Assembly: GCA_014905825.1 (NCBI GenBank)
Contig: JACGCN010000004.1
Coordinates: 1,860,001 to 1,924,000 of the forward strand
Direction: 5' to 3'
From: Lyophyllum atratum
Taxonomy: Eukaryota > Basidiomycota > Agaricomycetes > Agaricales > Lyophyllaceae
DNA length: 64,000 nt
In this document: one piece after another, positions 786-54,977 of the stretch
Layout of the letters: every line of letters starts with the position of its first letter
How positions within the stretch are numbered: position 1 is the stretch's first letter
Notes under the pieces: model-generated
Databases searched by the model: none
What the model was told of the DNA's origin: nothing
The model's input: the letters and a program-made list of their open reading frames with translations, nothing else
Position numbers and translations under genes: made by a program

Positions 786-1214
786 CTAGCAGGGAGCGCT
801 GTAGGCTTGGGACGAAGATCTAAAGGGAGGATGGAGAAGGGCAATCAAATTTGGAATTGGTCGCCAAAAATTGCGCGTGATCATGATGCTAGATTCCGTG
901 ATTCGGCCGCACGGAATCAAATCTGTTTCCACCCCCTCATGCCTCTAAGCAACCTCTAAGGTCTATAATCCTCCACGATTTTTCCTACTATGTTTCACGG
1001 ATGTCGCTTTTCTGGATCTCGAATTGACTAGCGAACAACCATCAAGCATTAACGCGGCTGAGGGCGGCGCGACAATCCCATGCCTGGGTCATGCGACAGC
1101 CGTCGAGAAGACATTTGGGTTCTCCGAGCGGGCCGTAGGGAAGTGCTGGCACCAAGTGGGACATCCTAGAGGATAAAAGCGGCCAGAATCTGTGCATGGG
1201 ACTGTTCAATCATC
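786..1214. promoter_or_regulatory. Divergent intergenic region, MDE1 / GH27 remnant
   Basis: About 430 bp between the MDE1 start codon on the minus strand and the GH27 start codon on the plus strand. It should hold both promoters. I see no repeat, RNA gene or conserved motif in it. Confidence 0.4.
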
Positions 1215-2200
1215 ATGATGTTCACCTGGCCTTGGTTCTTTGCTGCAGTGTTCGCTTCGACCTGTCTAGCTCTCAACAATGGGGTCGCTGTAACACCTCC
1301 GATGGGGTGGAATCCTTATAATGCGTTTCTGTATGATTTACACCGCATCTGCTTGTCTTCGGGCATCCATCCTGACCATTCTCAAAGATGCACAACGACT
1401 GATTCTCAGTACCGCGCTGCTGCTCAAAGCCTCATAAGTTTAGGCCTCAGCACGCTGGGATATAAATATGTCAACCTGTGAGCCTAGTTGTAACTCGTGC
1501 TGTCATGTTTCCTGATACGTTCTGGCGACAGTGATTGCGGGTGGCAGGGGAAAACACGCAATTCAACTGGCGGTTTTACTTGGGACACGACCACGATCCC
1601 CGGTGGGATTCCGGCACTCGCTACATTCATTCACAACCTGGGACTCAAGTTTGGCGTATACTCTGACGGGTGCGCTCTAGCCTTTTCTGGTCTCTAGGTC
1701 CTACAACTCAATCTTATTGCAATGCCAATAGTGGTTTTCTTCGCTTGCGATTTTGTTGGCGGAACGGCCAAGTATCTAGGAAGCCTCGGTCATGAGACCT
1801 CTGATGCGAATACATTTGCATCGTGGGGAGCAGATTACCTGAAGGTGATTACTTGTTACACTCGAAGACCTAGATGGCACTAACTCACTTGTGCAAGTAC
1901 GATAACTGCTACGCAGGTAACCGGTTCTATCGATCCAAGATCATGCGATGTTGACAGGCAATTCAGTTAGCGAGTACGGTGGTCTTTACCCGCAAGGTCA
2001 AATTTTGGTTTCGGTGGCCATGTTTGACGGTCGGCCATTGTTTCTTGAGATCAGGACCCCAGTCACTCCGCTTGTATATTCTGGCCCTGACATTGTAACG
2101 GTGCCATGATATAGAATCCTTCAAACAGCCTGCTAAGTCGCGTTATTTAGTATGCACGGTACGCAATGACAAATGCCTGCCCTCAACTCCTCCCTGTAAT
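1215..2200 (+). pseudogene. GH27 alpha-galactosidase, N-terminal half only, frameshifted
   Basis: Starts with a secretion signal (MMFTWPWFFAAVFASTCLAL) and the GH27 opening VAVTPPMGWNPYNAF, then QYRAAAQSLISLGL, YKYVNLDCGWQG, FTWDTTTIPGGIPALATFIHNLGLKFGVYSD, and after an intron [19 protein letters not shown] and WGADYLK + YDNC, which carries the expected catalytic nucleophile Asp. The exon starting near 1732 has one base too many in a T run (TGGTTTTCTTC) for the frame needed by FFACDF, so the downstream exons are shifted. After YDNC the sequence degrades; a trace of YARYAMTN is readable near 2150 and nothing of the C-terminal half of the barrel follows. GH27 enzymes release terminal alpha-galactose from oligosaccharides and galactomannan. 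I call it a pseudogene; a single homopolymer sequencing error would repair the first lesion but not the missing C-terminus. Confidence 0.7.
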
Positions 2201-2963
2201 CCGCGCAAAACACGTCGACTCCTTCAGTTGCAAGAGTAGTGATATGTCTCACGATGGATGATCACTTTTCAGCGCAAAATTATCTACAGGGGGAAGAGGG
2301 GAAGAGGGCGGGTATGGGGCAGGCTGCCGCTGCTGACATCCTGGACGAGGCTACGAGGCTTGTGATCGTAAAAGGGGCGCAGTATGAAAAACGCATGGAG
2401 TTGATGTGGACGGGCGGCGGAGGCTTCTGGGGTGTATGGGTGGGAGTTGCTGCGGAAGGGAGGGTATATCCAATCTGATCAACAAGTTCTTCTAACTACT
2501 AAAATTGACTAGGTTCATTCAGATATGATTTTGAAAGAACATAACATTCCTATTGTAGGGTGTCTTTGGACTGTGGGATCTCCAAAGGGTGCGAGAACGA
2601 GGGACAAGGAACCTCGGACCGCATAGTCGATGATGCGCGAGACGAGAGAGAGACGCGACCCGGAACATGAACGAGAAGAGATGCGAAAACAGGATGTATT
2701 CGTATACGTAACGTAACACACGTAGACACGAATGAGAATGAGACGTAGAGATATGGAACAGAAAACAAGAGCCAAAAATATGGGGAACATGAGAAAAATG
2801 GGAACATGAGGTAGAGGAGATATATAATCTAATCTACATGTCGTGATGTCGTAACCGTGAAGATGTCGTGTCGTGTCGTGTCTGAGTCGTCGTCTCCGTG
2901 AATCTCTCCTCTGCTCGGCCAGCCCTGCTAGCCACCTCACCGGACAGTAAGGTGATACATAAT
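2201..2963. other. Gap without recognisable gene
   Basis: Between the GH27 remnant and the alpha-kinase stop codon. Open frames here have no recognisable domain. Around 2860-2890 there is a short simple repeat of CGTGT units. Probably decayed sequence plus the alpha-kinase 3' UTR and terminator. Confidence 0.5.
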
Positions 2964-5900
2964 TTAGACTGGGGACAGCTTCAGACCAAGGCAGACATTA
3001 TTACAGACGTGAGCCTTTCTAAAGTCTTTCAGCGCCTCAGACCCTCCATTTGTGGAGCTGAGATCATCCCGTTCACTGTCAATGAAACATGTTAGGAGCA
3101 GATTGAAGAGTAAATTAGATGGAACTCACGTATGCATCTTGAAATGAACGACGATATTTTGAGCGCTGTCTGGATGGAAGCAATCTACGCGGACATGTCA
3201 GTCTAGTATGAGAGGGGTCTTTGCAGGCATCGTACATTCAAAATCAGACAACAAAAACTCGCCGTCGTATTTGGAGTAGGCATAGTGGCTCAAGGCATTG
3301 AGAGCGGCGTCCATGAGGGGGGTCTTTGTTAGAACTGGATCAGGCATGCTGGGTGTACACAGGTCATCCATGAAACACCAGATGTCTCTTGATGCGGTAG
3401 GGTCACTGGTGGGAGGGCCATTTGAAGGGCGACGAAGTGCCAAGGATAGCTTTGCAATTGTGAAGGCTGAGGCTACGCAGTGAGCAGGAATAGATAATTC
3501 AGAAAGAAGGTACTCACCACAATACAGATCTTTAGAAACTGACAAGTCCGTCAAGGCCTTGTCAAAGTCGGCGAGTACATGTTGAGCTAGGGCATAGCGT
3601 GATACTTCTCTATGGCAATGGCCATCCATCTGCTGAGCTCGTGAGGTATCGACGCCATGAAGATCAGCAATTAAGATCCTCTTCTCTCCTCGAGGTGAGT
3701 TGATTACGGCCTGAGTAAGGGTTGGGGTTAAATGACACTCAAAACGGGATAAGGCAGCACTTACAATATGAATGGTGAAAGGGCCCCAAGTGAAGGTTTC
3801 ACCGGTCAGAGACATAGTCTGATCTTCGAGTTCAGGAACGTGAGCGGTGCATACGGCGCCATTAGGGATTTGAGGGGAGGTGACTTCTAAGTACTGGCTG
3901 GCGTCGGTCTCAGCAGGATCCACCGGCAGCACCTCACCAATACGAATAACAACTGGGATTGCCGGAATGACTGAAAGGTCATTCTTGGTGATAGGGGACC
4001 CATCCTGCGGGAGCTGCTTTTCACCTTGTGCTACAAGCACTTCGGCCTTGATTAAGCCCAGTGCCTTGCAGATCGAGTTGCATTTGTGCTGGGCTGCAAA
4101 ATTGCGCAGTCCTGTTAGACCTCTGTCACCAAGGCCCCCAGACTTGTTGGCGCTGAATTGCACGACATCCCTTAGTTAAGTCAATGATGTTCAGGAGTAA
4201 AGGACTGACGTGTGAACCATAAGGTCGAAGAGAACCAGATCATCAACACCTCGAACATGCTGTATGAATTTCGGTTCCAAAATGCCTATGAAAAGAGTTA
4301 GAGCCGCTATAAATCTTAGGCATGAAGAATAACAAACCTTGAATATCAGCAAACACAAGCTGACCACCCGAGTTCTCCAATGCGAAGTGGGCAAATGCAT
4401 CACAGGTTTTACCAAGCAGGGTGGTATTCCGCCCAGCATGCATAGTTCCAGAATATTTCTGGACATGGGTGTTACTTAGCATCGGGTCAACGAGCCAGGT
4501 TTGCCCCACGTCCGGCCCGCTGTCTACTGTGAGGATAAAGCCAGAAGCGACCCTGATGTCTAAGGAAGTTGTTAGGTATAGTTTACCATCTATCATAGCG
4601 TCACATACCAGCTGCTGAGATCCTCTTAGCCATGACTGCTACCATGAACTCCCCAACACATTGACTGGCTAGCTGTTGACGCCAGAGCTCCTGCTTAAGG
4701 TGGCGCTTGTTCTCTTCAAGTGATGGGAAGTGATTGGGTACTCCAATATCAAAAAATGATTTTGCAGCATAGTCTTCGCCGTCCATCATGAGCTACCGAA
4801 AATACAGATTAGCAGGGGGGCGCGTCATACAGAACTTTTAAAGGGCTTACCTTGTACATGTGTTTAGTTTTTCCTGATGCCATAGGTTGATCTTTAATGA
4901 GAGAGATCAGGCGAGGCCTTGCTTCATGAGTCCATTTGACAGCTCCGTCCAAGGTCACGGTACAAGTTCCACGAGTCGCCATGTATTGAGTCTCTTCTGC
5001 CTCAATGACTGTCAAGTAGGTCCGTCCTGTCAACAGACGTGATAAGTACAAGAGCTCGAGATATAAGCGAACTACGGGAACTTACGTTTAAGTGACGGCC
5101 CCTCAGTCTCAGAAGTTGAAAGCGTAGTGTTTGTTCGCTTACGCGGAGAGGGGCTGGGAGTAACATCATTCTGGAGCGCAAAGAATGAGTGAGGACGAGA
5201 AATGAGGGTAAGTAGCAATAACCTTAGGCGTGAACTTCAGCTTGACAGTGAAGTCAAGTACTTTCATCTTCAAGTTCTTTGCCGAGATCTGTGGGGCGCC
5301 GGGTGGGAAGGACGTCCATAACTCGCCTACACTCAGGCCAGTGTAATGGTCCTCAACCTTTGTATCGAAGTCTGCGAACCGAAGCACGAAGTCATTGCTG
5401 AAATCGTAGTCATAAATAAGAGACTAAACGATGAAGAGGAGCTGCGTAAGGTAGGTGCCATCCATACCTGTCCAACGTCACGTGCCAGCGTGACAATCGT
5501 CCAAATTAGTCTACAAATGTAAGATGTGGCCTCAGGACCTCCCTGAGGCACTCTATTGCTAATCGAAGTCGGTCACCTTAAGGAAATAGCATACACAATG
5601 GTACCTGGATACTCGGATCGGACCCAGGTTGTGAGAAAAAAAAGTAGATCCCGAAACACCAACGCGACACGTCAAGACGCGTCAATACAGTGCTCGAGGC
5701 GACTATTCCCGGTGTTGCTCGTTGATCCTACTATGCCCAAAAGGAAGGCTCACATATTATCGCGTCTCGCAAGCTTCTCCAATATGGCTACACGTACTGT
5801 GAAGGATATTGTTGTGGCATTGTCACCAAGGAAAAAGAGAAAAGTCCGAGTCAGCGAAGAAAAGGAGAATCTGCCGGTGAGTTTGCATTCTGATAATTCA

Positions 5901-8900
5901 GCACCCTGAAGTGTTGAAGCTCTATAGTCAATTATTCCTCAGCACGTAGAGACAAACAGATGCAGTCAAGATAATGATGTATTTTTGGACACATCACATC
6001 GCGAGAACGGCATCACAGGACTTTTCACCATTTTTCCTGCCGAAAAACAGCCTGCCACTGCCGAAACGAAGGCTTCTTACATCCAGTACTCACTACCTCC
6101 CCCACGGAAACGATCTGCTTGCGATGAAGAGGACGACAACATGTCAGTTTTGATGTCAAGTCAAAATGATGACAACATCTCTGTTCTCGCGTCTCGCGGC
6201 ATTGCCGATCCACGCGACTTGACCGATTATGACATGCGTTCTATCACATCAATCGAACTGAGAGGAGATGGAGCCGACACTCCCGAGATTCTGGAAGAGG
6301 TCCGAGAAGGGAAACTACGCGAGGCACCCAACGTGCTTCAGGCGTCACATGCATTAAAAGATCTGAACGAAAAGATCAAAGGACCTTCGAAAGGGAAGGG
6401 GGGAGGATATAAGGCACCCACTGACCTCGATCCTTTCGTCAGGGTTCGTTTGGAGGGAATGCGCACATTCCTCAACTTGTACACAGATCCCCGATCCAAC
6501 ACTTTTGAGAAATGGGGAGCGTCATCATATCAGGCAGCGCTTGGACTCGGGAGGGGAAGATATTGCGCTCGAACTCTCCGGCGCCTTTCCTGTGCTTACA
6601 TACGTGACCGTGAAGTGCTTCCTATAAATCCCTACGGCGACTGGAATGAGACGATGCTCGTTGACGAAGATCTAGTCAACGACATCAGTCTGTATCTGCA
6701 GGAGCTTGGCGTCAACATCACGGCAGCAAAGCTTGTCGAGTACCTCAGACGACCGGAGGTGAAGGAAAAACATGGTATCACAAGGCCGATCTCGATCCGC
6801 ACTGCCCACCGCTACCTTCAACTTCTCGGCTACCGCTTTCAGTCCACACCCAAGGGACAGTTCGCTGATGGACACGAGCGGGCTGATGTTGTTTACTACC
6901 GTGACAATAAATTCCTTCCTCAGCTCGCGGAACTCCAGAAACGGATGCGCGTCTTCGTTGACGCAAACCCTGAATATGGTCCTATTATCGGACTTCTCGT
7001 AATTCTTTGGCTCCATGATGAGAGCATCTTCTATGCTCATGACCGTCGCCGCCGCGCTTGGTATCACAAAGATGCGACTGCACGCCCGTACAAGAAGGGT
7101 GATGGTGCATCTTTGATGATTGCTGATTATGTCTCTGCGGACTTTGGATGGCTGCGATCCTTGGATGGAAAGCGCAGTGCACGTCGCATCATGCGCCCGG
7201 GCAAAAACAAGGATGGATACTTTACCAGTGATGACATACTCAAGCAGGCCGATGAAGCAATGGACATCGCGGAGCAGGACTATCCGGGCATGGAGCATGT
7301 GTTTATTTATGACAATGCACCGTCTCATTTGAAGCGCGCTGATGGCGCTCCCTCAGCCCGATACATGCCAAAGTTTACCCCAGCCGAGGGCAAAAACTGG
7401 GAGGTCGAGGTTACGAAGCGCACCCCCGATGGGAAGCCGGTCTACACAGCAGATGGCAAATATGCGAAGATCAAAATCCCGATGAGCGACGCGACACTAC
7501 CTGACGGACAGCCACAGTCACTCTATTTCGGACCCAGCCATCCCCGCGCTGGAATTTTCAAAGGAATGGCCGAACTTCTTACGGAGCGTGGATATGACCG
7601 CGAGAAGATGTTCAAACTGCGAGCTCAGTGTGACAAATTCAAATGTAAACCTGGTATTGTAGACTGCTGTTGCCGCCGACTTCTATTCACCCAGCCCGAC
7701 TTCGTGGATGCTCCGACACTCCTTGAAACACACTGTGGTGCCCGGGGATTCAAGATCATCTTCCTTCCCAAGTTCCACTGCGAACTGAATTTTATTGAAC
7801 AGTGTTGGGGATATGCTAAACGACTTTACCGGCTGTTTCCAGAGTCCTCGAGGGAGGATGCCCTTGAGAAGAATGCTCTTGAGGCTCTTGATGCCATTCC
7901 TCTTGTAACAATGCGCCGGTATGTGCCATATGTTCAACCCAATTACGGATCTGACCTTCTCACTGGTCATCAGATTTGCCAACCGTTCACAACGGTTCAT
8001 GTCAGCATATCAGCTTGGGCTCAATGGGAGACAGGCTGCATGGGCTTCCAGAAAGTACAAGGGTCACCGAGTACTTCCGGAGAAGATCTTGCAAGAGCTG
8101 GAGCGAGCCGGCGTGCAGTAGCTTTAACATCTACTCATTATCATAATCCTGACTAATGTTTTGCGATAGGCTCTATCAATTCTCAAGATATCTTAAATCC
8201 CTTTGTAATCCTACATTCTGGAGTACATATTTCTAATATGACCGTCTCTGATTTCCGTATTTCGAGTGTGATGTCCTTCAATGCTCCAATCTTCAGCCTG
8301 ATTCCCGTTTAGACTAAAAATGTCACGGTAAAGTAACCTCACGTGACGTTGGACAGGTATGGATGGCACCTACCTTACACTGCCTGGACCCGGTAGCCAT
8401 AATTGTCGCAGCAATGCAAGTCCAGATGAACTCGAATGTTCTCAAGGACCTCCATAAATGCTTTCTCGGGAGCAACGGTTACTGAAAAAGGGTCTAGATC
8501 CATATCCCGCTTCGCCTTGGGCAGCTTGTGATTGAATGCCTTTGAGACCTATTACTACAAGTTAAGATAAGCAAACCGGGACACGAGGCTTAACCCACCT
8601 TGATAGTAATGTTGCCCAGGGGCTTTCCCTCTCTGAGCTTCATGGTGGCTGCAGCGCCATGAAGGTTGCCCTTGGGGACACGTTGAGGATAGGCAGACTT
8701 GGCTCTGGCTCGGTCACCAGCGCTATGCATGCCTTCAACAATGGAGCTGGACAGGCCAAAATTCTGGTAGCATGTCAGCTATGCTAGTACTAAAATAACA
8801 AGGAGAATAGCGCACCTCCTGAGGGATATTCATCGCGCGTGCAAGAGGTGCTGGAGGTGGTCCAGGGTCTCTTGGGTTGGGCGCTTGCGCGAGAGCATTT

Positions 8901-11900
8901 CGAACCGAGGCGCCAACTGTGCCTCCTAAGCGGGACACTGTGACGGTGGTGTATTGGACTGGGCCACTGGACATGCCCAAAGGTCATGGACAACAGTAGT
9001 ATACAATTAGTCATCACAAGTTGTATTCCGAGATCTTCCTTAGAACACAACAAGCACACTTTTACCCCCTCGTCGACCCTCCCTAAGGATCTCCGAGCCC
9101 GTGCTCACCTACGGTACATCGCGTACACCGCCGCCCCTGTGTAGGGTGACAGCACCCCTCCTCTAGGGTCACAAGAGTCCTGCAAAGGACGACATTGCCC
9201 CTTAGCAGGGTTACAGCTAGGTGCGACCGCCATCGCGCCCGGAGCACGCGTGGGCAGGGAACCTCAACAGGTGGCCCACCCCGCAGCTCTGCCTTCCGGA
9301 CCCGGCTTCAACCAACGAGAAGTCCGTGGACGCCCGATGTCACCGCCCGGCATCACAATGGTGGGGGCACCGCGGACTTCAATCAAGTCGGTTGAAGTCC
9401 TGGTCTTCTATCTACCATCCTCAGACGTTGTTGCAGCTGCGTCGCGCAGCTTGCGACCTCTGAGGAGCATTTATATACTCTCGGGTGATGTTGCTGCATG
9501 CCTTGCGCTGCGAGCGACCCCCGAACACCAGCCCTTTCATCAGACGACGTTGCGGCATGCTCTGCATGGCTCGCGATCTCTGATTTCTTCTCCCACCGCT
9601 ATCCTCGGATGTTGTTACAGCTGCGTCGCGCAGCTTGTGACCTCTGAGAAAGGTTCATACATCCTCGGGTGATGTTGCTGCCCGCCCTGCGCTGCGAGCG
9701 ACCCCCGAGTATTCGTACTTTCCGTCAGATGATGTCGCGGCATGCTTTGCATTGCTCGCGACCTCTGACTTCTTTCTCTCGCGCGGATCGTGGTGCAAAC
9801 CTGCCGTCGCCGAGATTCCATCCCACAAATCCTTCATATTCAGTCTGCACCCCCGACGACCGCCGTAGTCGCATTCGACACTTAGACTCATGGCTCACTC
9901 TACTATACTCAATAATATATTCTTATGGGCTCTCGAAAGCTCGAAATCCCGCGAGATCTTCGTGATATCATTCAAGATTCATCTCGCGCCCCCAGTGCCT
10001 CGCTCCCTCGCACTCGCGAACTCACTCGCTGTGTTCCACTGACTTCAGCATCACTTTCGATGTTTACCACGGCGCCGAGCAACCTTATGTTAGGGTTACC
10101 TCATGCTGATCTCTGAACCGCATTCCTCTCCACTCTTCATCTTCCGGAGATGCAAGCCGCCGTACCTGACACCCACGGCGACCACCACGAACCCCGCTAG
10201 TGTTGGAAGAATTAGGAGAGGTTTGGGTAGGATCTAGATGTTGTGTTGAGGGGAAATTGAGTGGAGTTTATCATGAAGCAGAAACATCGGGTCATATCTC
10301 TGGAACCAGGGACCCTGGTCCTTAGGTCTCTTTTACACCTTCAAGGCATCGTGTTTCCCGTACTGCTGATGCCTGGATGGCCCCTTATAGTCACCTCCTT
10401 CTCCTCCATCAACACTTTTGGGCAGTTTCAGCATATTGTTCGTATCTCGGCAACCGGTATGTCGATACCTTCGATTCCTGATTCTTTGGATTCGCCTCGT
10501 CAAGCGCTACCCGGCAGTATACGGGTTTATGGCATTCCGTTCAGCCGTTCTCCCTCATCGACGATTTTGCGCGTTTTCAGCATGTTGATGATATCTTTGC
10601 ATCCGCTGGATCGATCTCCCTAAATCCTAGCTCATTCGACTCGCCTCGACGACCGCTTTCCGACAATATACGGATTTATAGCATTCCGGTCGTCCGTTCG
10701 TGCTCGACGTCACGCTCAACCTCGTTCACCCCCATCACCGAGCCCATACCGCGTTACGCCGTTCTTGCGACCCCGCCCTCGGCGTTGACGTTGCAGAAGC
10801 GGTTTGCTTTTGCTTTTCGACGGTCTGCCACTGCCGACAACACATCCCGAAGCAGCGCCCTCCTACGAAGTGGCTGCAGCTCGGGGTTCCTTGAGGTTCG
10901 AGCGCCCTTCGTGGCAGCTCCCTCTCACCCCTTTCCTGACGCACTCCTAGTGTCTCCTCGTCGCTTGGGACGGCCTGGAGGTCGGAAGCCTCCTGCCCCG
11001 CATTTTCGCACCATCAAACGTCGCCAGGACCGCCAGCCTTGGACTACAACTACGAAGTTGAAGTCTCAGCTTCGTCGGGACGTTCGCTCCTCATGCGCTC
11101 CTTGCCTGGAACGTCTCGAAGGCCACCTACGGTACCGGTACCTACCTCGCGGTTTCAAGCCCAATGACCCCGTTCTTGCGACCACGCCTTCGGCGTTGAC
11201 GTTGCAGAACCGCTTCCTCACCGAGATCGATGACCTCCCGTTTTTGGGCTTTAAGACTACCGCTCCTACTCGTCGCGCTCCTCATTTACCAGACCTCGAG
11301 TGGGTGGACGGTTTGACATCACGAACTCCACATATCGACCTGCCGTTCTGCGACCACGCCCTCGGCAGTGATGTTGCAGAACCATTCCTCCGCGCTGCTG
11401 CCAACTCCTGAGCGACGGCTTATCCTCGCCCTCGCCCCTCTAGCGCCTCATCTCGTTCCGAGCCTCTCAGCAGGCGTGGACGGGCTGCTTTGTGGACCTA
11501 TCCCCGAGACATAGAATGACTTACTCGAACGATGAGGAGCCCCGCGACCACAGACCAGGTGTTTTAGGGCCCAGGGTCGTCCTCACGACCACAGTTTACA
11601 TCGGCGGTTGTGTTCTGCTCATCGTCGCATCAGAAACAGCACCCTTCTGTGTTTTATAGGCCTCGCAACCGGGCCTTTGCCTTGGCTGTTCCTCATACAC
11701 ACCTGACACGCCGTCTGCCGCGCCAGCACGTCTCCCAAAGCTCCGTGACCCACGCCGAGCCTGTTGTTTGGTCGACCTCGCTACCGCCTGCATTGACGTA
11801 GCAAAAGCAATTTCGTTAGGTGGATGCTTAACGCGTGATGTGATCTCTGACAAGCTCAGCACTTGTCATGTCGCATTTCTGCACCTCCTGGTCATTAGCT

Positions 11901-14900
11901 GGGAGGCTTCCTCTATCTTTCCTGGCTCTCGCGACCACGCCCATCAGCGTCGATGTTGCGGAACCAAACTCGGAACCAACGGGCTCAAGGTACACTGCGG
12001 TATCCAGCAAGTTCATCGGATATCGCCAGTCCTTCTCCGCTAGTCCTTCTGCCCGACGCGCTTCTAGCGTACCCATAGCGTCTGGGACCGTCGTCGATGC
12101 CCAGAACAACCTGTTCAGACAACAGGAGGCTCTGCGACGCCGACTTCGCATTTCTGAACCTCAGGACACCCTCAAGATTATTGCTCGTACCCTTGCTTCT
12201 GTTCTTGTGCCATGCCCTGGGTGTTGACGTCGCAGAACGACCTCTCCCGTGCCCACCTAGCTCGCGTTTTAGGTCTCCAGGCATCCTTGAGAACCCCGGC
12301 TGCGCCTCGTTCGCTCACCGGCGATATTCGACTCCCAGCGCGCTCGTACAGATCCGTTCGCCTTGGACGATATCTCAGCAATCGCTGGAGCGATCTCCTT
12401 AAATCCTAGCTCTTTCAATGCGCATCGCCGTCCGCTTTCCGCCAATGTAAAGGTCTATGACATTTCGCCCAACCGTTCGCACTCAGCGTCGCGCTCAACG
12501 TCGTCCATATCCTCACCCTACCATTCTGACTGTATCTCGGCAACCGTTGGAGCGATTTCCGTAAATCCTGGATCGTTCGACTCGCATCGTCAACCACGTT
12601 CCGCCAATATGCGGGTTTATGGCATTCCGGTCGTCCGTTCGTGCTCAGTGTCACGCTCAAGGTCGTTCTCACCCTTCCACCAAGCCCCACCGCATTACAC
12701 CGTTCCTGCGACCACGCCCTCGGCGTTGACGTTGCAGAACCGGTTTATCTTTGCTTTTATAGCTCTCTTAGTGGGAGGTCACGAACTCTCAAGTCCCAAG
12801 TGGTTTACAGTGTTCATTGCTGGCATTCTAGCTCGTTGAACCCTCGGCTTGCGTGGATGGGCTGCCTCTAGCTACCCTGACCCGTGGGGTGGCATTCTAT
12901 GCCTCTGGGACCCGCCATTGCATCTTAGAACGACCCAGCCGGATGATCAGGACCTAACGACCGGCAACGACGCGTTCTAGAGCCCCGGGACGTCTTCAAG
13001 ACCCTTAGTCACCGTATCCACAGCGCCTGGGACCGTCGTCGACACCCGGAACGATCTGTTCGGACGATAGGAGGCCCAGCGACCGCTGACTTCGCATTTC
13101 TGGCCCCCGCGACATCACGGAGACAGCCTACCACAACATACGACCATAGCATCGCTCATTTACGCTGAAAGACGACTACCTCCGCTTAGGATACGGTTCT
13201 ATCGGGTCCCCGCGTCTCCCGAGCCCCTGAAGCTGTGTGGACGGACAGTCATGCGCTGTCCTGACCCATTGGGTAGCTCGGAGCTCATTCATACGTCTTT
13301 TGGGGCCTAGCTACGCCTCCAGAAGGCTGTTCAAGCTATTGGCAGTCCTGGCGCTTCGGCCAGCTCCCTCATCGCCGCCTCTCACGATTCGGCTGACTTT
13401 ACGACAGCCACCATGCACTACCAACCTCTTTCGAGCACCTAGCACCCTTGTCAGGGGTCAAGACTGACGCTCATGACGACTACATCGACCAAACCCTATA
13501 TACAAGGCTGAGAAGTTGTCAGATTCGTCGGCGGACCCTGCTCCGGCTTACTTCACGCTTCACCAAAATAACGACACTGTTCCTGCGACCACACCCTAGG
13601 CGTTGACGTTGCAGAACTGTTTCCTCCTCGCCTGACTCCCACAGCAGACATTGCCACTTCTCGAGCCTCGGCACTTGTTTCCAACCCTGTTCTGTGACCC
13701 GCGTCATCTTTTATCTACCCTGCGGCGTGTACCTCTGCAGCCAAGAGCGGCTCTTTCATGCGACGTCGATGGCCAACCTCACTCTTTCATGCCCCGAGAT
13801 GTCTTTAGGAACCCCAGGCATGACTACGAGACCAGATGCGCAGACTTTGGACGTTCTGCAACCGTGCGTTATGCATTGATGTTGCAAGACTGTCTCTCAC
13901 CTCGGCTGGGGGGCCCTCAACATGGAGATCCCATCCGTCTCTCAGCTCTCGCGACCACACTTTCGGTGTTGACGTTGCGGAGCTGTTCTCCACATATTCC
14001 ACTTATCCGTGACTGCAACAATGTCCTCTCGCGTTTCGCCCCTCCCAAGCTCCAGGACGTCTACAAGATTACGTTCCCTCTCAGACGGTCGCGCCGAACA
14101 GGTTTCCTAGCTGGACACCTGCGATAGTACGGCTCGCTGCCGTGTCAACATTGGCATCTCTTTGCTGTTTGGACCATATCTCGACAACGGCTGCACCGAT
14201 TCCTCCGATTCTCGATGTTCTTAGTTCTCCTCGTCAAACACTACCCGCCAGTATGCGAGTTTATGGGATTCCGCTTAGCAGTCCTCCCTCTTTCACGATT
14301 TCGCATGTTTCCGGCGTTTCGATGATATCTCGACAACTGTTGGCGCGATTTCCCTAAATCATGGCTTATTCGACTCTCCTCGTCGACTGCGTGCTGCCGA
14401 TATTGTTCACCTCCCCCCACATTCGTGCTGCATAGGATGTACCGACATTTTGTCAATTAACTTCAAGGTCATTTGTATCTTCGTACTTTTAGATGGGGTT
14501 GGCATCGAAAGGAGTGAAACATGTTCTTGCGACCATGTCTGCGGACACTGACGTTGCAGAAAATGTAATCCCTAATGACGCCTATGGATGAACGCTGCAT
14601 GCATATCTACTATGTCTCATGCGACTCGCTCCTTTCGTCTTGCGACCGCACCTTGGGTGCTGATGTTGCAGGGTAGTTGTGATACTTGTCACTCGACACT
14701 TTGCTGGATATGGTCAGGTACTCACTCTAGTACCACCTGAAGTTCCTTTTGATGTCACTGTCTCAACGGATACCCATGTCTTCACACATCCCAGTTGTCA
14801 GCTGGGGGGCTTTTGCGTTGACGTTGCGGGACTTTCTCTATCGCCGTCACGATGTTTACAGTCTACTCAACATTGGATGGACACAATATAACCTTGGCTC

Positions 14901-16797
14901 CACTCCTCACTCCCACCACGTCAAGATCATCATGTGGCTCATTCCTCACTCTTACCATGTAGAGACCATCGTGTGCCTCATTCGTCGCTCACGAGATGAG
15001 TTCCCGTGACCGCGCCCTTTGGTGTTGATGTCACGGAACTGGACTCCTATGTTCTCTCCTCCTCTGGAAGTGGAAACTGGAGAGCCAAATCCTGGTGATT
15101 GTTTTCATACCCGCCCGCCCCCCCCCTAGTCCCAGGATTGCTTTCTCTACCCGACCGCACCTTTTGTTGCCATGATTATGCCATATCCCAATCATTTTCC
15201 TTCAACCTTCAGCCCTCAGGTTTACCTCCACGTGTTTGGGTACTTATCTCGTGTACATCTGAACCACTTCAGTATGCACACGGGAGAAGTGGGGGGCTGT
15301 AGGGGGGAGGTATAGGTATCGAGGACTATATACCGTCTCCTCAGCCTGACGTAGCACAGCGGCCCCACTGGAGCCGCTAAAGGATGCAGCGATGGAAGAG
15401 ATACAATATGGAGGATCTCCGACCACCCTTCTGCTATCCTCAGTGTGATGGCAGGCACATATGGCAGTAAGGCTAGGACTGGCAAAGCCTCCGATGACTT
15501 ATCGCCTTTTCATTCTGACATGGCACGGCGGCCCCACTGGAGCTGCCCAAGGATACAGAGAATAGGGATAGGATATGGAGGATCTCCAACCACACATCTG
15601 CTATCCTCAGTGCAATGGCAAGTGCATATAGCCATAAGGCTACGACTGGCAAAGCCTCCAACAACCTAGCGCCTTCCCAGCCTGGCATGGCGCAGCGGCC
15701 CCACTGGACCCTCTGGAGGATATGAAGGGATGATAGAGGGTACAATGGATATGTAACCACCCTCCTGCTATCCTCATCGCAATGACAGATGGAGTGGCGG
15801 TATATTGGGGTTCAGGAGGCTTCCTTCAACTAGCGCTTCGAGCGCTTCTCAACCGTGGAACAGAAATTTTGGATGGAAATTTTTTCTTCTTTTTTCGAAA
15901 CTGGGGGGCCCATTGTTCTGGGTGAATTATTCTCTTTTACTTTGTCTTGACTTTCAACCTTAGCATTTGGGGGGCCATTGTATGCCTACTTTGCTTTCTG
16001 CTGCATGCCCTCTGGACATGGGGGGGCACTGTGACGGTGGTGTATTGGACTGGGCCACTGGACATGCCCAAAGGTCATGGACAACAGTAGTATACAATTA
16101 GTCATCACAAGTTGTATTCCGAGATCTTCCTTAGAACACAACAAGCACACTTTTACCCCCTCGTCGACCCTCCCTAAGGATCTCCGAGCCCGTGCTCACC
16201 TACGGTACATCGCGTACACCGCCGCCCCTGTGTAGGGTGACAGCACCCCTCCTCTAGGGTCACAAGAGTCCTGCAAAGGACGACATTGCCCCTTAGCAGG
16301 GTTACAGCTAGGTGCGACCGCCATCGCGCCCGGAGCACGCGTGGGCAGGGAACCTCAACAGGTGGCCCACCCCGCAGCTCTGCCTTCCGGACCCGGCTTC
16401 AACCAACGAGAAGTCCGTGGACGCCCGATGTCACCGCCCGGCATCACAGACACTTAGGTCATAAAAACAGCGGGATGACTTGAAAGGACGTACGATATTC
16501 GTTGCAACCTCCGCAGTTGGTACCAGGATATAGGAACTGGTAGACATCACCGCAGCTGCGACAAGAAGGCCATTCCTTGTCAGCCTGGTTCTCTCTGGCT
16601 TTGCAAATGCCGCATTGAGTTCCAGTCATCAGCTCATGAGACGCGCCGCAAGTATCGCAAGTGTTCACGCCTTCCTGGAAGGTTCCGTTGGCACGCTGAT
16701 TACAATGGCCGCAGTGACCATCCTTGTCAAGGTATGGATCAGAATAGTGAGAACAGCCAGAGCAACGACGGTTAAGGATCTGTGAATGCAGCGGCAT
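2964..16797 (-). CDS. Tandem alpha-type protein kinase with N-terminal CxxC zinc-ribbon region; two introns hold transposons
   Basis: Atypical (MHCK/eEF2K-like) Ser/Thr kinase. My exons, minus strand: 16797-16494, 8925-8816, 8763-8599, 8548-8379, 5397-5223, 5170-5086, 5026-4851, 4792-4609, 4559-4338, 4285-4210, 4152-3765, 3710-3518, 3472-3236, 3184-3130, 3075-2964; total 2652 nt, 883 aa, every junction in phase. Residues 1-100 carry six CxxC pairs (CSGC, CGHC, CDTC, CGIC, CRSC, CGGC). Alpha-kinase domain 1 spans about 350-588: AFAHFALENSGGQLVFADIQG, then FDLMVHT, the GGLGDRGLTG loop and the zinc motif HKCNSICKALGL. Domain 2, about 640-883, repeats the layout (ALSHYAYSKYDGEFLLSDF, FKMHT, HVCNNVCLGL) but lacks the DxQG and Gly-loop residues, so it is probably a pseudokinase. 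Two introns contain the LTR element and the DNA transposon. Substrate unknown. Confidence 0.86.
5449..5483 (+). repeat. Left terminal inverted repeat of the DNA transposon
   Basis: 35 bp, exact reverse complement of 8341-8375; TA target duplication directly outside (5447-5448). Confidence 0.9.
5733..8121 (+). CDS. DDE transposase of the Tc1/mariner (IS630) superfamily
   Basis: Catalyses cut-and-paste transposition of the surrounding element. Exons 5733-5876, 5943-7918 and 7974-8121 join in phase to 755 aa. The first exon (MPKRKAHILSRL..., ending in a basic stretch SPRKKRKVRV that could be a nuclear localisation signal) is spliced at CTCAG to the main exon. An N-terminal helix-turn-helix is visible (RPISIRTAHRYLQLLGYRF). 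The catalytic acidic residues fit LWLHDES (first D), IYDNAPSH (second D) and FHCELNFIEQCWGYAKR (third, E of the IE pair). A long insert between the second and third carries a Cys-rich patch (KCKPGIVDCCCRR). The last exon gives the family-typical tail FMSAYQLGLNGRQAAWA...HRVLPEKIL. I see no frameshift or stop, so it may be active. This lineage is common in basidiomycetes, where it is usually annotated only as 'DDE superfamily endonuclease'. Confidence 0.88.
8341..8375 (-). repeat. Right terminal inverted repeat of the DNA transposon
   Basis: 35 bp, exact reverse complement of 5449-5483; TA target duplication directly outside (8376-8377). Confidence 0.9.
8939..9357 (+). repeat. 5' LTR
   Basis: 419 bp, TG...CA ends, same length as and by eye identical to 16030-16448. 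Preceded by the target duplication GACAC. Confidence 0.93.
9359..9375 (+). other. Candidate primer binding site of the LTR element
   Basis: One base after the left LTR the sequence is TGGTGGGGGCACC, as expected for pairing with a tRNA 3' CCA end. I cannot name the tRNA. Confidence 0.5.
9421..9790 (+). repeat. ~61-bp tandem array with higher-order structure inside the LTR element
   Basis: Six units of roughly 58-65 bp, each with a GYTGY half (GATGTTGC type) followed by a GCGAC half and CTCTGA or CCCCGA. Units 1 and 4, 2 and 5, 3 and 6 resemble each other most, so the array is a ~184-bp three-unit block present twice. Units 1 and 4 contain the near-perfect inverted repeat AGCTGCG/CGCAGCT. Confidence 0.75.
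10440..14360 (+). repeat. Dispersed ~150-200-bp repeats of the LTR element interior
   Basis: A block containing CTCGGCAACCGTTGGAGCGAT, a CTCGCCTCGTCAA stretch and GGGTTTATGGCATTCCG recurs in diverged form near 10440-10600, 10640-10740, 12360-12500, 12530-12680 and 14160-14360. No reading frame is conserved between copies. Confidence 0.6.
10767..15034 (+). repeat. Recurrent ~29-nt covarying hairpin motif in the LTR element (about 12 copies)
   Basis: Copies at 10767, 11178, 11350, 11931, 12207, 12708, 13585, 13858, 13951, 14529, 14642 and 15006, each about 28-30 nt. Layout: a 5' GCGAC arm, one C, an inner 4-5 nt arm, a 3-4 nt loop, the inner complementary arm, TGAC or TGAT, then GTTGC. The outer arms pair (GCGAC with GTTGC) and the inner arms pair (ACGCC with GGCGT). 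Several copies differ by paired changes: GCACC/GGTGC at 14642, TGTC/GACA at 14529, ACAC/GTGT at 13951, outer GTGAC/GTCAC at 15006, outer GCAAC/GTTGC at 13858. Confidence 0.75.
15352..15860 (+). repeat. ~168-bp tandem repeat, three copies, 3' part of the LTR element
   Basis: GGCCCCACTGGA recurs at 15361, 15530 and 15697, each followed by similar text (GGAGGATCTCC, CTGCTATCCTCAGT, ACTGGCAAAGCCTCC). No open frame runs through it. Confidence 0.75.
16014..16029 (+). other. Polypurine tract of the LTR element
   Basis: A run of seven G (ACATGGGGGGGCAC) abuts the right LTR. Similar TGGGGGGC runs recur further inside the element (about 13907, 14804, 15292, 15903, 15970), so several PPT-like tracts exist. 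Confidence 0.65.
16030..16448 (+). repeat. 3' LTR
   Basis: 419 bp, by eye identical to 8939-9357; followed directly by the second GACAC. Identity of the two LTRs implies a recent insertion. Confidence 0.93.
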
Positions 16798-16840: not shown

Positions 16841-17070
16841 CGGATTTTATGGGTTGAGGTAGGTGAGCGCTTTGGCTCAAATGTGCTGCTTTGACGGAAT
16901 CGCTTGGGCCGATTCGCTTTGGCGGTATAGCTTTGACGATAATCGCTTGGGCCGATTCGCTTTGGCGGTATAGCTTTGACGGAATCGCTTTGACAGAATT
17001 GCTGACGTCCGAGACTAATACTCAGCTGCTTGTCCCAGATGTTTTTGGATAGTAACGAGGACAAGAAGAC
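16841..17070 (-). promoter_or_regulatory. Probable non-coding first exon / leader of the alpha-kinase gene
   Basis: On the minus strand a good donor (CCG then GTGAGT at 16840) and an acceptor AACAG at 16803-16799 would remove an intron just before the ATG at 16797. The upstream exon stays open in frame but has no ATG before a stop, so I take it as 5' UTR. It contains a direct duplication of about 52 bp (around 16900-16985) built from CGCTTGGGCCGATTCGCTTTG-like text. Confidence 0.5.
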
Positions 17071-37213: not shown

Positions 37214-37279
37214 AAAAATAAATATTGAGATCCGTAGATCTACCACTCCGGGAAAGCGTGTCATCCTTGTGCAGGGGCC

Positions 37280-37310
<31 letters not shown>

Positions 37311-37334
37311 TTCGTATGTCACCCCGAAGGGGAC
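37214..37334 (-). ncRNA. U6 spliceosomal snRNA
   Basis: Minus strand. A 5' hairpin (GTCCCCTTCGGGGT) is followed by ATTGGAACGATACAGAGAAG with the ACAGAGA box, then ATTAGCATGGCCCCTGCACA with the AGC triad, and AAGGATGACACGC: the universally conserved U6 core that pairs with U2/U4 and the 5' splice site. The first T run long enough to stop Pol III is T5 at 37218-37214, giving at most ~121 nt; the mature 3' end may be earlier. No intron is seen. Confidence 0.95.
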
Positions 37335-54225: not shown

Positions 54226-54977
54226 TCAAGAGGTAAACACACGAACCTTCCGCTCCTCTCCCCTCTCGGTAAGGTCGGGGTTCTGGGTAACCTTTCCAGC
54301 GGCTTTCTCGATGCCACCTACGAAGGGGTGAGATTCAGAATCGCAAGACAAAAGGTGGAAATGGAGAAAGGAAAAACAACTCACCGCGCATCTTCTCGCC
54401 GAACGACGCCCTCTGCTGTCCCTGTCCCCCAGCCATCCCAGTCTGACCCATCCCAGTCTGACCCATTCCGCTCTGCCCCATCCCACCCTGACCCATCCCC
54501 GTCTGCCCCATCCCACTCTGGCCCATCTCAGTCTGGCCGCCGCGGTCGCGAGCAGTGGCACCTACGCCCGTACCCATACCGGTGCCCGTGCCGTAGGACT
54601 CACCCCCGGACGATCCAAAAGTGTCGCGTCCGCCTCCGCCTCCGCTGGTACCGAACGGGTCGCCGCTCTGCCCGCGGTCGCTGCTGAGGAATTGCTCGTC
54701 GCCGGTGGAGCCGTACATGTTGGAGGTGTCCTGCTGGCGCTGGCCTTGGCCTTGGTTGAAGTCGCCGCCCATGTGGGGGTCGACGGTGCCCATGTTGGCT
54801 TGGCCTTGGCCGCGGCGCTGTTGGGTGGTGTCCTCACCTGTGGAAAGTGTCAGTAGAAGTCTGGAATGAGATACGCTATATGAACGCACCGAACTGGGCC
54901 CCTTGGTCGCTACCAAAGCCCGTAGGCCGGGTGGAGGTGTTGTACTCGTCGCTGGTAGTGTTGTTTCCGTAAGACAT
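54226..54977 (-). CDS. Gly/Gln-rich low-complexity protein with CsbD-like C-terminal motif
   Basis: The ATG at 54977 (MSYGNNTTSDEYNTSTRPTG) splices to EDTTQQRRGQGQANMGTVDP. The middle is low complexity: SGGGGGRDTFGSSGGESYG, then about eight M-G-Q-[ST/G]-G pentapeptide repeats (54430-54540), which at DNA level are a 15-bp minisatellite. The last exons read GQQRASFGEKMRG + GIEKAAGKVTQNPDLTERGE, which resembles the CsbD-like/stress-response motif (K-x-x-G-x-x-x-x-x-x-G-K-x-x-x-[ND]-P). The stop at 54226 assumes no further intron; a GTTCGT donor after GEERK could lead to another short exon. Such proteins are abundant, highly expressed and hydrophilic in basidiomycetes; function unknown, perhaps desiccation or stress protection. 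Confidence 0.7.

What the first reader, a model, noticed from the sequence alone, without database searches (positions are those of the whole stretch)
10767..15034. A dozen covarying hairpins inside a non-coding LTR element
Within the interior of the LTR element a ~29-nt motif occurs about 12 times with conserved layout (outer 5-bp stem, C opposite TGAC/TGAT, inner 4-5-bp stem, 3-4-nt loop). Differences between copies are often paired: inner GCACC/GGTGC, ACGCC/GGCGT, TGTC/GACA, ACAC/GTGT; outer GCGAC/GTTGC, GTGAC/GTCAC, GCAAC/GTTGC. Compensation in both stems argues for selection on an RNA structure, for example packaging, dimerisation or recognition by a helper element's Gag or RT. I know of no described LARD with such an array.
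Basis: partly seen in the sequence, partly recalled or inferred. Interest (0 to 1): 0.87.

Follow-up and report, generated by a model that had tools for sequence, protein, structure and literature searches.

The report
Shared hairpin tags of parasitic retrotransposons
A non-coding retrotransposon in the mushroom Lyophyllum atratum carries a dozen predicted RNA hairpins built on one conserved core, and the same core and predicted primer site occur in protein-coding retrotransposons of that genome, so the hairpins likely serve as tags by which the helper's proteins would recognise and copy the parasite.

Summary
Window 8939-16448 is a complete non-coding LTR element (LTRs identical, target-site duplication GACAC). 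A covariance model finds 12 hairpins in it and 61 in the five full-length family members, all in element sense. They lie in 39 sequence contexts at irregular spacing, so recent tandem duplication does not explain them. Covariation is real but modest: inner and middle stems pass helix-level tests, the outermost stem does not, and no single base pair passed my R-scape-like test.

(1) The hairpin core (X1 with C opposite UGAY) also occurs with its strands in reversed order in leader hairpins near the 5' LTR. (2) The same hairpins lie in the pol-ORF2 spacer of one Ty3/Gypsy subfamily (3 of 3 copies found; 0 of 20 more distant ORF2 loci by strict pattern). (3) The predicted primer site and the next 28 nt match upstream of 22 of the 23 ORF2 loci.

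Best reading: cis-acting RNA tags for trans-mobilisation, most likely packaging. That the module is shared with a coding element is shown by sequence; that Gag or another helper protein binds it is inferred.

The parts
8939..9357 (+). 5' LTR, starts TGTGAC and ends ATCACA; preceded by target-site duplication GACAC (8934-8938)
   Evidence: 419 nt, 100% identical to the 3' LTR; flank letters
9359..9371 (+). predicted primer binding site TGGTGGGGGCACC
   Evidence: position directly after the LTR; the 18-mer across the LTR/primer-site junction has 25 exact places = 5 family members + 20 places upstream of Gypsy-ORF2 loci; tRNA not identified
9374..9400 (+). leader stem-loop GGACTTCAA / TTGAAGTCC (9 bp)
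   Evidence: present in all five elements and folds; window 9352-9399 matches upstream of 22 ORF2 loci at 83-92% identity; the letters there were not read
9418..9770 (+). six strand-reversed (type B) hairpins: outer stem - TGAT (three of six; CGTT, CGAC, TGTT in the others) - GTTGC-type - inner hairpin - GCGAC-type - C - outer stem; at about 9418, 9478, 9537, 9602, 9662 and 9722 (three kinds, twice)
   Evidence: none on the antisense strand of the five elements
10758..10803 (+). type A hairpin 1
   Evidence: R1 57.5 bits
11169..11214 (+). type A hairpin 2
   Evidence: R1 63.4 bits
11341..11386 (+). type A hairpin 3
   Evidence: R1 51.2 bits
11922..11968 (+). type A hairpin 4
   Evidence: R1 50.6 bits
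12198..12242 (+). type A hairpin 5 (diverged; not used to build the model)
   Evidence: R1 34.8 bits, E=1.7e-7
12699..12744 (+). type A hairpin 6
   Evidence: R1 65 bits
13576..13621 (+). type A hairpin 7
   Evidence: R1 58.4 bits
13849..13894 (+). type A hairpin 8
   Evidence: R1 43 bits
13942..13987 (+). type A hairpin 9
   Evidence: R1 58.6 bits
14520..14566 (+). type A hairpin 10
   Evidence: R1 47 bits
14633..14678 (+). type A hairpin 11
   Evidence: R1 54 bits
14997..15043 (+). type A hairpin 12
   Evidence: R1 48.4 bits
15342..15784 (+). 167-nt tandem repeats; the first two carry a 6-bp hairpin with loop CCCACTGGA (15358-15378, 15527-15547), the third has lost the stem
16014..16029 (+). 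predicted polypurine tract GGACATGGGGGGGCAC before the 3' LTR
   Evidence: identical string before the 3' LTR in all five elements
16030..16448 (+). 3' LTR, followed by target-site duplication GACAC (16449-16453)

Best explanation
The hairpins are likely RNA recognition tags, most likely packaging signals, by which this non-coding LTR element would be picked up by the proteins of a coding Ty3/Gypsy element of the same genome that carries the same hairpins and the same predicted primer site. Shown by sequence: a core made of helix X1 (GCGAC/GTTGC), a C opposite UGAY, and an inner stem is repeated 12 times in the window element and 7-15 times in each of four others; in the non-coding family it also occurs in reversed strand order; and it is found 3-5 times per copy in the spacer between pol and the next ORF of one Gypsy subfamily. 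Predicted by folding: C pairs with the G of UGAY, leaving a bulged U on one side and a bulged A-Y on the other, so the recognition surface would be a short bulged duplex rather than the loop. Inferred: a helper protein (Gag, or the product of the ORF next to the hairpins) binds the bulged duplex; many weak sites along the RNA raise the chance that the transcript is packaged; the shared primer site and leader then let the helper's reverse transcriptase start on it.
For: Sharing between otherwise dissimilar elements: blastn of the five non-coding elements against 9.9 kb of the C75 Gypsy locus gave nothing for four and one 30-bp match, a type A hairpin, for the fifth (C70). R1 scores four spacer hairpins in C75 at E=5e-8 to 0.035 and three in C86 at 3e-12 to 3e-6; a fifth in C75 and a fourth in C86 are pattern matches; the third subfamily copy (C90) has three pattern matches in the same place. 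The spacer is outside the ORFs. Between the two Gypsy copies read, four hairpins are 88% identical (98 of 111 aligned positions) against 76% (165 of 218) for the rest of the spacer and 83% (102 of 123) for the pol end (the last part of that alignment is poor). Predicted primer site and leader: upstream of 22 of 23 ORF2 loci. RNA level: one orientation only; X1 cells 65 G-U (51 at one position) against 3 A-C; mean folding z -2.12 sense against -0.98 antisense over 67 hairpins. Selection: LTR pairs show no mismatch within each of five elements over the compared 225-420 nt, so all five moved recently, yet each keeps 7-15 hairpins; cores are 87.8% identical (917 of 1045) against 82.4% (12132 of 14720) in alignable DNA outside the hairpins, higher in 8 of 10 element pairs. 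Dispersal: 61 hairpins in 39 contexts; 1 of 66 window pairs shares a flank above 75% identity. Precedents: BARE2 RNA, which lacks its own Gag, is found in BARE1 particles (PMC3735527, passages); multiple dispersed motifs act as packaging signals in RNA viruses (PMC6281560, abstract).
Against: No protein binding is known. Per-pair covariation was not significant; the outermost stem shows none and its 9-nt flanks are no better conserved than the surroundings (479 of 593, 80.8%). In the inner stem G-U (32 cells) hardly exceeds A-C (25). In 2 of 10 element pairs the cores are less conserved than the surroundings. The hairpins were found in only 3 of 23 ORF2 loci by strict patterns, although 22 of the 23 share the leader, so most possible helpers would lack the tag or carry a form my pattern misses. 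The strand-reversed type was not seen near the Gypsy leaders with the strict pattern, and whole-leader folds form it as drawn in only about 12 of 21 cases by eye, in C119 in none. Pol was seen in two of the ORF2 loci only. The LTRs of the partner were not read, and an LTR search found only the non-coding family. RNA export or translation control fit the sharing almost as well.
Confidence: 0.5

Rival explanations
1. The hairpins are nuclear-export (or RNA-stability) elements bound by a host protein, comparable to the constitutive transport element of simple retroviruses, which (recalled, not looked up) presents the same internal loop twice in opposite orientation to the host export receptor. 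Both coding and non-coding elements would need it for unspliced full-length RNA.
For: The core occurs in both strand orders, as expected when a protein reads the bulged duplex itself. It is shared by coding and non-coding elements. Many copies, and no open reading frame is needed.
Against: By strict pattern only one Gypsy subfamily carries it, while all would need export. An intron-poor fungal transcript should need no special export signal (general knowledge).
Confidence: 0.2
2. In the Gypsy subfamily the array controls expression of the ORF downstream of pol (re-initiation, internal entry, or processing between the two ORFs); the non-coding elements inherited it passively.
For: In C75 and C86 the hairpins sit in the pol-ORF2 spacer, before the ORF2 start.
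Against: No such ORF was found in the window element, yet the recently moved non-coding elements keep 7-15 hairpins each and have strand-reversed ones in the leader. The 20 more distant ORF2 loci lack the strict pattern.
Confidence: 0.1
3. The motif is a small selfish or recombinogenic DNA repeat that spreads inside the elements by template switching during reverse transcription, without a function in RNA recognition.
For: Interiors are mosaic, with blocks out of order and internal duplications; per-pair covariation is not significant; G-U hardly exceeds A-C in the inner stem.
Against: 39 contexts without close flanking similarity, one orientation only, G-U excess over A-C in X1, helix-level compensation, sharing with a coding element without other similarity found.
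Confidence: 0.15
4. Chance hairpins in a GC-rich sequence, or products of recent tandem duplication with random changes.
For: Several larger internal duplications exist; some hairpins are in duplicated or orthologous blocks (11 multi-member clusters).
Against: Shuffles give 0.06 against 6; no antisense match at E<0.01; irregular spacing of 93-877 nt and only 1 of 66 window pairs with a shared flank.
Confidence: 0.02

Closest known systems
Large retrotransposon derivatives (LARDs), e.g. Sukkula of grasses
   Same: LTRs and a core domain that encodes no protein; assumed to depend on products of autonomous elements; [quoted passage not shown]
   Different: In those passages (the only part I read) the conserved structure is not described as an array of one repeated bulged hairpin, nor as shared with a coding partner. 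Here the middle of the interior is poorly conserved between members; the ends are conserved and the hairpins recur.
BARE2, parasitic on BARE1 (barley)
   Same: A Gag-less element whose transcripts enter the partner's particles; conserved dimerisation and packaging signals (PMC3735527, passages).
   Different: BARE2 is a relative of its helper in overall sequence (recalled); here hairpins, predicted primer site and leader are the only shared parts detected. No packaging experiment exists here.
Multiple dispersed packaging signals of ssRNA viruses
   Same: Multiple sequence-structure motifs along an RNA sharing one recognition motif (PMC6281560, abstract).
   Different: There the motif is most often in the unpaired region of stem-loops (PMC9065705, start of abstract); here the conserved letters are in a bulged duplex and the loops vary. 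Not a reverse-transcribing LTR element.
Constitutive transport element of simple retroviruses (recalled)
   Same: One internal-loop motif presented in both strand orders.
   Different: Two loops in one long hairpin, not a dozen scattered short hairpins; sequence similarity not tested.

Membership tests
LARD (large retrotransposon derivative) | Two LTRs with TG...CA ends and a target-site duplication | tested here: met
   419-nt LTRs identical, TG...CA, GACAC duplication
LARD (large retrotransposon derivative) | Interior of several kb without gag or pol coding capacity | tested here: met
   about 6.7 kb interior; longest ORF there 208 aa; 10 of the 20 listed ORFs scanned, no Pfam match above cut-off
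LARD (large retrotransposon derivative) | Predicted primer binding site and polypurine tract next to the LTRs | tested here: met
   TGGTGGGGGCACC and GGACATGGGGGGGCAC, the same in five elements; the primer tRNA was not identified (one search gives 14 candidate places, unread)
LARD (large retrotransposon derivative) | Several copies with the same organisation | tested here: met
   five full-length elements plus two solo LTRs
LARD (large retrotransposon derivative) | Autonomous partner recognisable by shared ends | tested here: inconclusive
   Predicted primer site and leader shared with 22 ORF2 loci; no LTR-wide similarity found; 3' region not shared; partner LTRs not read
Dispersed packaging signals | Many stem-loops sharing a recognition motif along one RNA | tested here: met
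   61 predicted hairpins in five elements
Dispersed packaging signals | Specific binding by the capsid protein | not testable with these tools
   needs a binding or packaging experiment
Any of 4227 Rfam families | Score above the family's gathering threshold | tested here: not met
   only U6 in the whole window
Constitutive transport element | Binding by the mRNA export receptor | not testable with these tools
   no experiment; only the two-orientation layout was compared, from memory

The most novel reading that the evidence does not exclude
A strand-order-independent bulged-duplex tag is the recognition code of a retrotransposon helper-parasite pair. The non-coding element is in effect an RNA string of helper-recognition tags between a primer site and two LTRs, and selection keeps mainly its ends and the tags while the rest of the interior drifts. 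It would be an LTR-retrotransposon counterpart of the multiple dispersed packaging signals of RNA viruses.
Probability: 0.4. Interest if true: 0.86.

Novelty: new variant of a known kind. Interest (0 to 1): 0.74.

Why it matters
How non-coding LTR elements are chosen by the machinery of coding ones is, as far as I know, largely open. Here the detected shared parts are small and countable: a predicted primer site, a leader stem and a bulged hairpin core. Each can be mutated separately, and diverged loci that share the leader but lack the strict hairpin pattern sit in the same genome as natural controls. That makes helper choice directly testable.

Tried and rejected
Rejected: chance (shuffles), recent tandem duplication (a flank counts as shared only above 75% identity, so old diverged duplications would be missed), a known RNA family, hidden coding capacity (10 of 20 ORFs scanned), a kink-turn reading (considered by eye only: no GA/GA opposition that leaves X1 intact). 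Weak or against my reading: my own R-scape-like per-pair test, no significant pair and three unpredicted pairs ranked above the best predicted one; outermost stem, no covariation; two of five measures not unusual and the +2 slide close on one; inner-stem G-U 32 against A-C 25; whole-leader folds form type B as drawn in about 12 of 21 cases by eye. Rows dropped or chosen: hits outside the leader (two in C86, one each in C61, C70, C77) were not counted as type B; one weak C75 hairpin (E=0.035) fell below the threshold and is not in A4; A1 (47 rows) was picked by hand from the candidates, leaving out a few low-scoring ones and adding some core matches. Led nowhere: structure prediction of the 488-aa ORF2 fragment with six relatives, mean pLDDT 35.7, not used; Pfam on that ORF, nothing above cut-off; IMG/VR scan with part of the Gypsy pol, no relative; tRNA-length pattern for the primer, 14 places against 2 controls, not read. 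Literature: ten searches (two of them returned nothing); judged from titles and abstract starts, none shows a LARD or Gypsy with such an array; three papers were opened (passages of PMC7215508 and PMC3735527, abstract and outline of PMC6281560). Subscription journals are mostly not in that library, so absence there is weak.

Full report
WHAT IS THERE. The window lies in a 64.8-Mb assembly. A protein encoded on contig C75 is identical to one filed under Lyophyllum atratum, on a contig of the same length, 2,627,816 bases, so the genome is that of this mushroom. Window 8939-16448 is a complete LTR element: 419-nt LTRs without a difference, target-site duplication GACAC, a predicted primer site directly after the 5' LTR, a polypurine stretch before the 3' LTR, and an interior without recognisable coding capacity (10 of 20 listed ORFs scanned). 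The genome holds four more full-length members (C61, C70, C119, C77) and two solo LTRs. Within each of the five the two LTRs show no mismatch over the length compared (225-420 nt; two loci were cut before the end of the 3' LTR), so every one inserted recently.

THE HAIRPINS. The described layout is X1 - C - inner stem - loop - inner stem - TGAY - X1'. A strict scan finds 6 in sense, 0 in antisense, 0.06 expected. From 47 copies in five elements I built a covariance model; it finds 61 hairpins at E<0.01: 12, 13, 14, 7 and 15 in C86 (the window), C61, C70, C119 and C77. 14 of the 61 were not used to build it. All 61 are in element sense. The best match elsewhere in the window has E=0.29, the best antisense match in the element 0.24. 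In the window hairpins start 93-877 nt apart, and only 1 of 66 pairs has a 60-nt flank above 75% identity; over all elements the 61 fall into 39 contexts. That excludes recent tandem duplication as the source of the array; old duplication is not excluded.

COVARIATION, FOR AND AGAINST. On A1, 87.8% of cells pair against 84.5+-0.6 in shuffles and 41 cells have both sides changed against 19.2+-3.5 (0 of 500 each); the counts of pairs with such a change (10 against 8.4) and of pair types (27 against 24.7) are not unusual, and the +2 slide has 36 both-side cells. On a set chosen only by the X1/TGAY letters and an inner length of 13-14 (40 rows, 39 distinct), so without looking at inner-stem pairing, a tree-aware null gives 165 of 195 paired cells against 135+-12 (P=0.001) and 5 same-branch double changes against 1.1 (P=0.005); slid controls show no excess of paired cells; the outermost stem fails (P=0.33). 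On one representative per context (39; alignment fitted to the model), the inner stem (P=0.0055 and 0.0015) and X1 (P=0.011 and 0.0105) pass and the outermost stem does not (P=0.12). My re-implementation of the R-scape null on 38 rows gave no significant pair; the best inner pairs ranked 4th and 6th with E about 9-10. So structure is supported at helix level, not pair by pair. Independent of covariation, X1 holds 65 G-U cells (51 of them at one conserved position) but only 3 A-C cells, though the inner stem has 32 against 25; mean folding z over 67 hairpins is -2.12 in sense against -0.98 in antisense. That points to the sense RNA, not the DNA.

HOW MUCH ELSE IS CONSERVED. Between the window element and the others, blocks of 150 nt or more align about 28-60% of the middle region (element 900-6096; aligned columns), some out of order; leader and 3' region align over most of their length. 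Inside alignable DNA hairpin cores are 87.8% identical against 82.4% outside; this holds in 8 of 10 element pairs.

THE CORE IN BOTH STRAND ORDERS. Just behind the 5' LTR (9418-9770) are six hairpins, three kinds in two copies, in which the same core is turned round: outer stem - TGAT (in three of six; CGTT, CGAC, TGTT in the others) - GTTGC - unrelated inner hairpin - GCGAC - C - outer stem. Their outer stems differ in a paired way (TCAGA/TCTGA, TCGGG/CCCGA) and none was found in antisense; C61 has the same six, and two each pass the scan in C70, C119 and C77. In folds, 5 of the 6 type A structures printed pair C with the G of UGAY and leave a bulged U and a bulged A-Y, and type B hairpins that form show the same arrangement; whole-leader folds form about 12 of 21 as drawn by eye, none fully in C119. 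The conserved thing would then be a bulged duplex, whichever strand comes first. That is what a protein that reads the duplex would leave behind (inference).

A CODING PARTNER WITH THE SAME HAIRPINS. A genome-wide pattern gave 32 matches, 28 in the five elements (control 3); one of the other four led to C75. There R1 finds four hairpins, and a fifth is a pattern match, in the 422-nt spacer between a 1321-aa ORF with reverse transcriptase, RNase H, integrase zinc-binding and chromo domains and a further ORF of 488 aa. Two other loci have a 77%-identical downstream ORF. C86:1125350-1125850 was read: R1 finds three hairpins in the spacer and a fourth is a pattern match. C90 has three pattern matches there and was not read. 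Hairpins are 88% identical between C75 and C86, the rest of the spacer 76%. The other 20 loci with that ORF, at 31-44% identity, have no match of GCGACCN{8,18}GANGTTGC in the spacer (comparison; of the 85 matches, 41 lie in the five elements and the three Gypsy loci and 44 elsewhere; the reversed-pattern control has 26). Apart from the hairpins, blastn finds no similarity between the non-coding elements and 9.9 kb of the C75 locus.

SHARED PREDICTED PRIMER SITE AND LEADER. Searching window 9350-10250 gave, besides the five elements, 22 loci that match only its first 50-64 nt at 83-92%. Coordinates place each of them upstream, on the same strand, of one of the 23 loci of the Gypsy ORF (8.4-11.5 kb in 20 cases, 19-21 kb in two); the 23rd has none. 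The exact 18-mer at the LTR/primer-site junction occurs 25 times: 5 in the non-coding family, 20 among those loci. In the window the shared stretch includes nearly all of a 9-bp stem-loop; its letters in the Gypsy loci were not read. The 3' region 15044-16029 is not shared with them.

MECHANISM. Shown: recently moved non-coding elements keep a many-copy RNA-like module that also sits outside the ORFs of one coding Gypsy subfamily, together with a common predicted primer site. Inferred: the module is a recognition tag, most likely for packaging by the helper's Gag (or the protein of the ORF next to it); the leader and primer site then allow reverse transcription. An export-type element read by a host protein is the strongest rival, because a motif in both strand orders recalls the constitutive transport element (recalled). 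Translation control of ORF2 explains the Gypsy position but not the non-coding family.

COMPARISON AND NOVELTY. The element meets the tested features of a LARD; whether the partner's ends match in the LTR is open. LARDs with conserved RNA structure, Gag-less parasites packaged by a partner, and multiple dispersed packaging signals are each in print. An array of one bulged core in both strand orders, shared by a LARD and a coding Gypsy, did not turn up in ten full-text searches, in a library that lacks most subscription journals. I rate it a new variant of a known kind.

Noticed in passing
window 15342-15784 and the same region of L009-L012: 167-nt tandem repeats near the 3' end carry a second hairpin type: 6-bp stem with an invariant 9-nt loop CCCACTGGA; stems differ by paired changes (AGCGGC/GCCGCT, GGCGGC/GCTGCC, AGCAGC/GCTGCT); third copies have lost the stem.
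   Followed up: partly
window 10438-10728, 12366-12669, 14151-14350: A 142-nt repeat (TATCTCGGCAACCG...) in 4 copies, with further partial copies at 14151-14350; matching segments recur in the other family members.
   Followed up: no
five elements, interiors: LTR pairs show no mismatch within each element and LTRs of the other four are 96-98% identical to the window's, but interiors align only in blocks, some out of order, as if mosaics were made by template switching.
   Followed up: partly
L077 4817-5235 and L078 4838-5258: Solo LTRs with the same flanking GTTGG duplication in two copies of another repeat made of ~20-nt units: likely one insertion that was then copied together with its host repeat.
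   Followed up: partly
L076 5186-6652 and 22 further loci: A Gypsy lineage with a large ORF (about 1,100 aa in most intact copies) downstream of pol, without Pfam match above cut-off in the C75 fragment; relatives at about 30-38% in Agrocybe and Pholiota. The C75 copy appears cut near residue 463 by another repeat whose copies are often 11.3 kb apart.
   Followed up: partly
window 37220-37334 (-): U6 spliceosomal RNA gene.
   Followed up: no
window 16888-17003 and 54433-54535: Short tandem arrays (43/14-nt and 30/15-nt units) outside the element.
   Followed up: no
C49, C50, C67, C73: Pairs of 32-nt pattern matches about 2.1 kb apart on several contigs, probably another repeat family with a look-alike sequence.
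   Followed up: no
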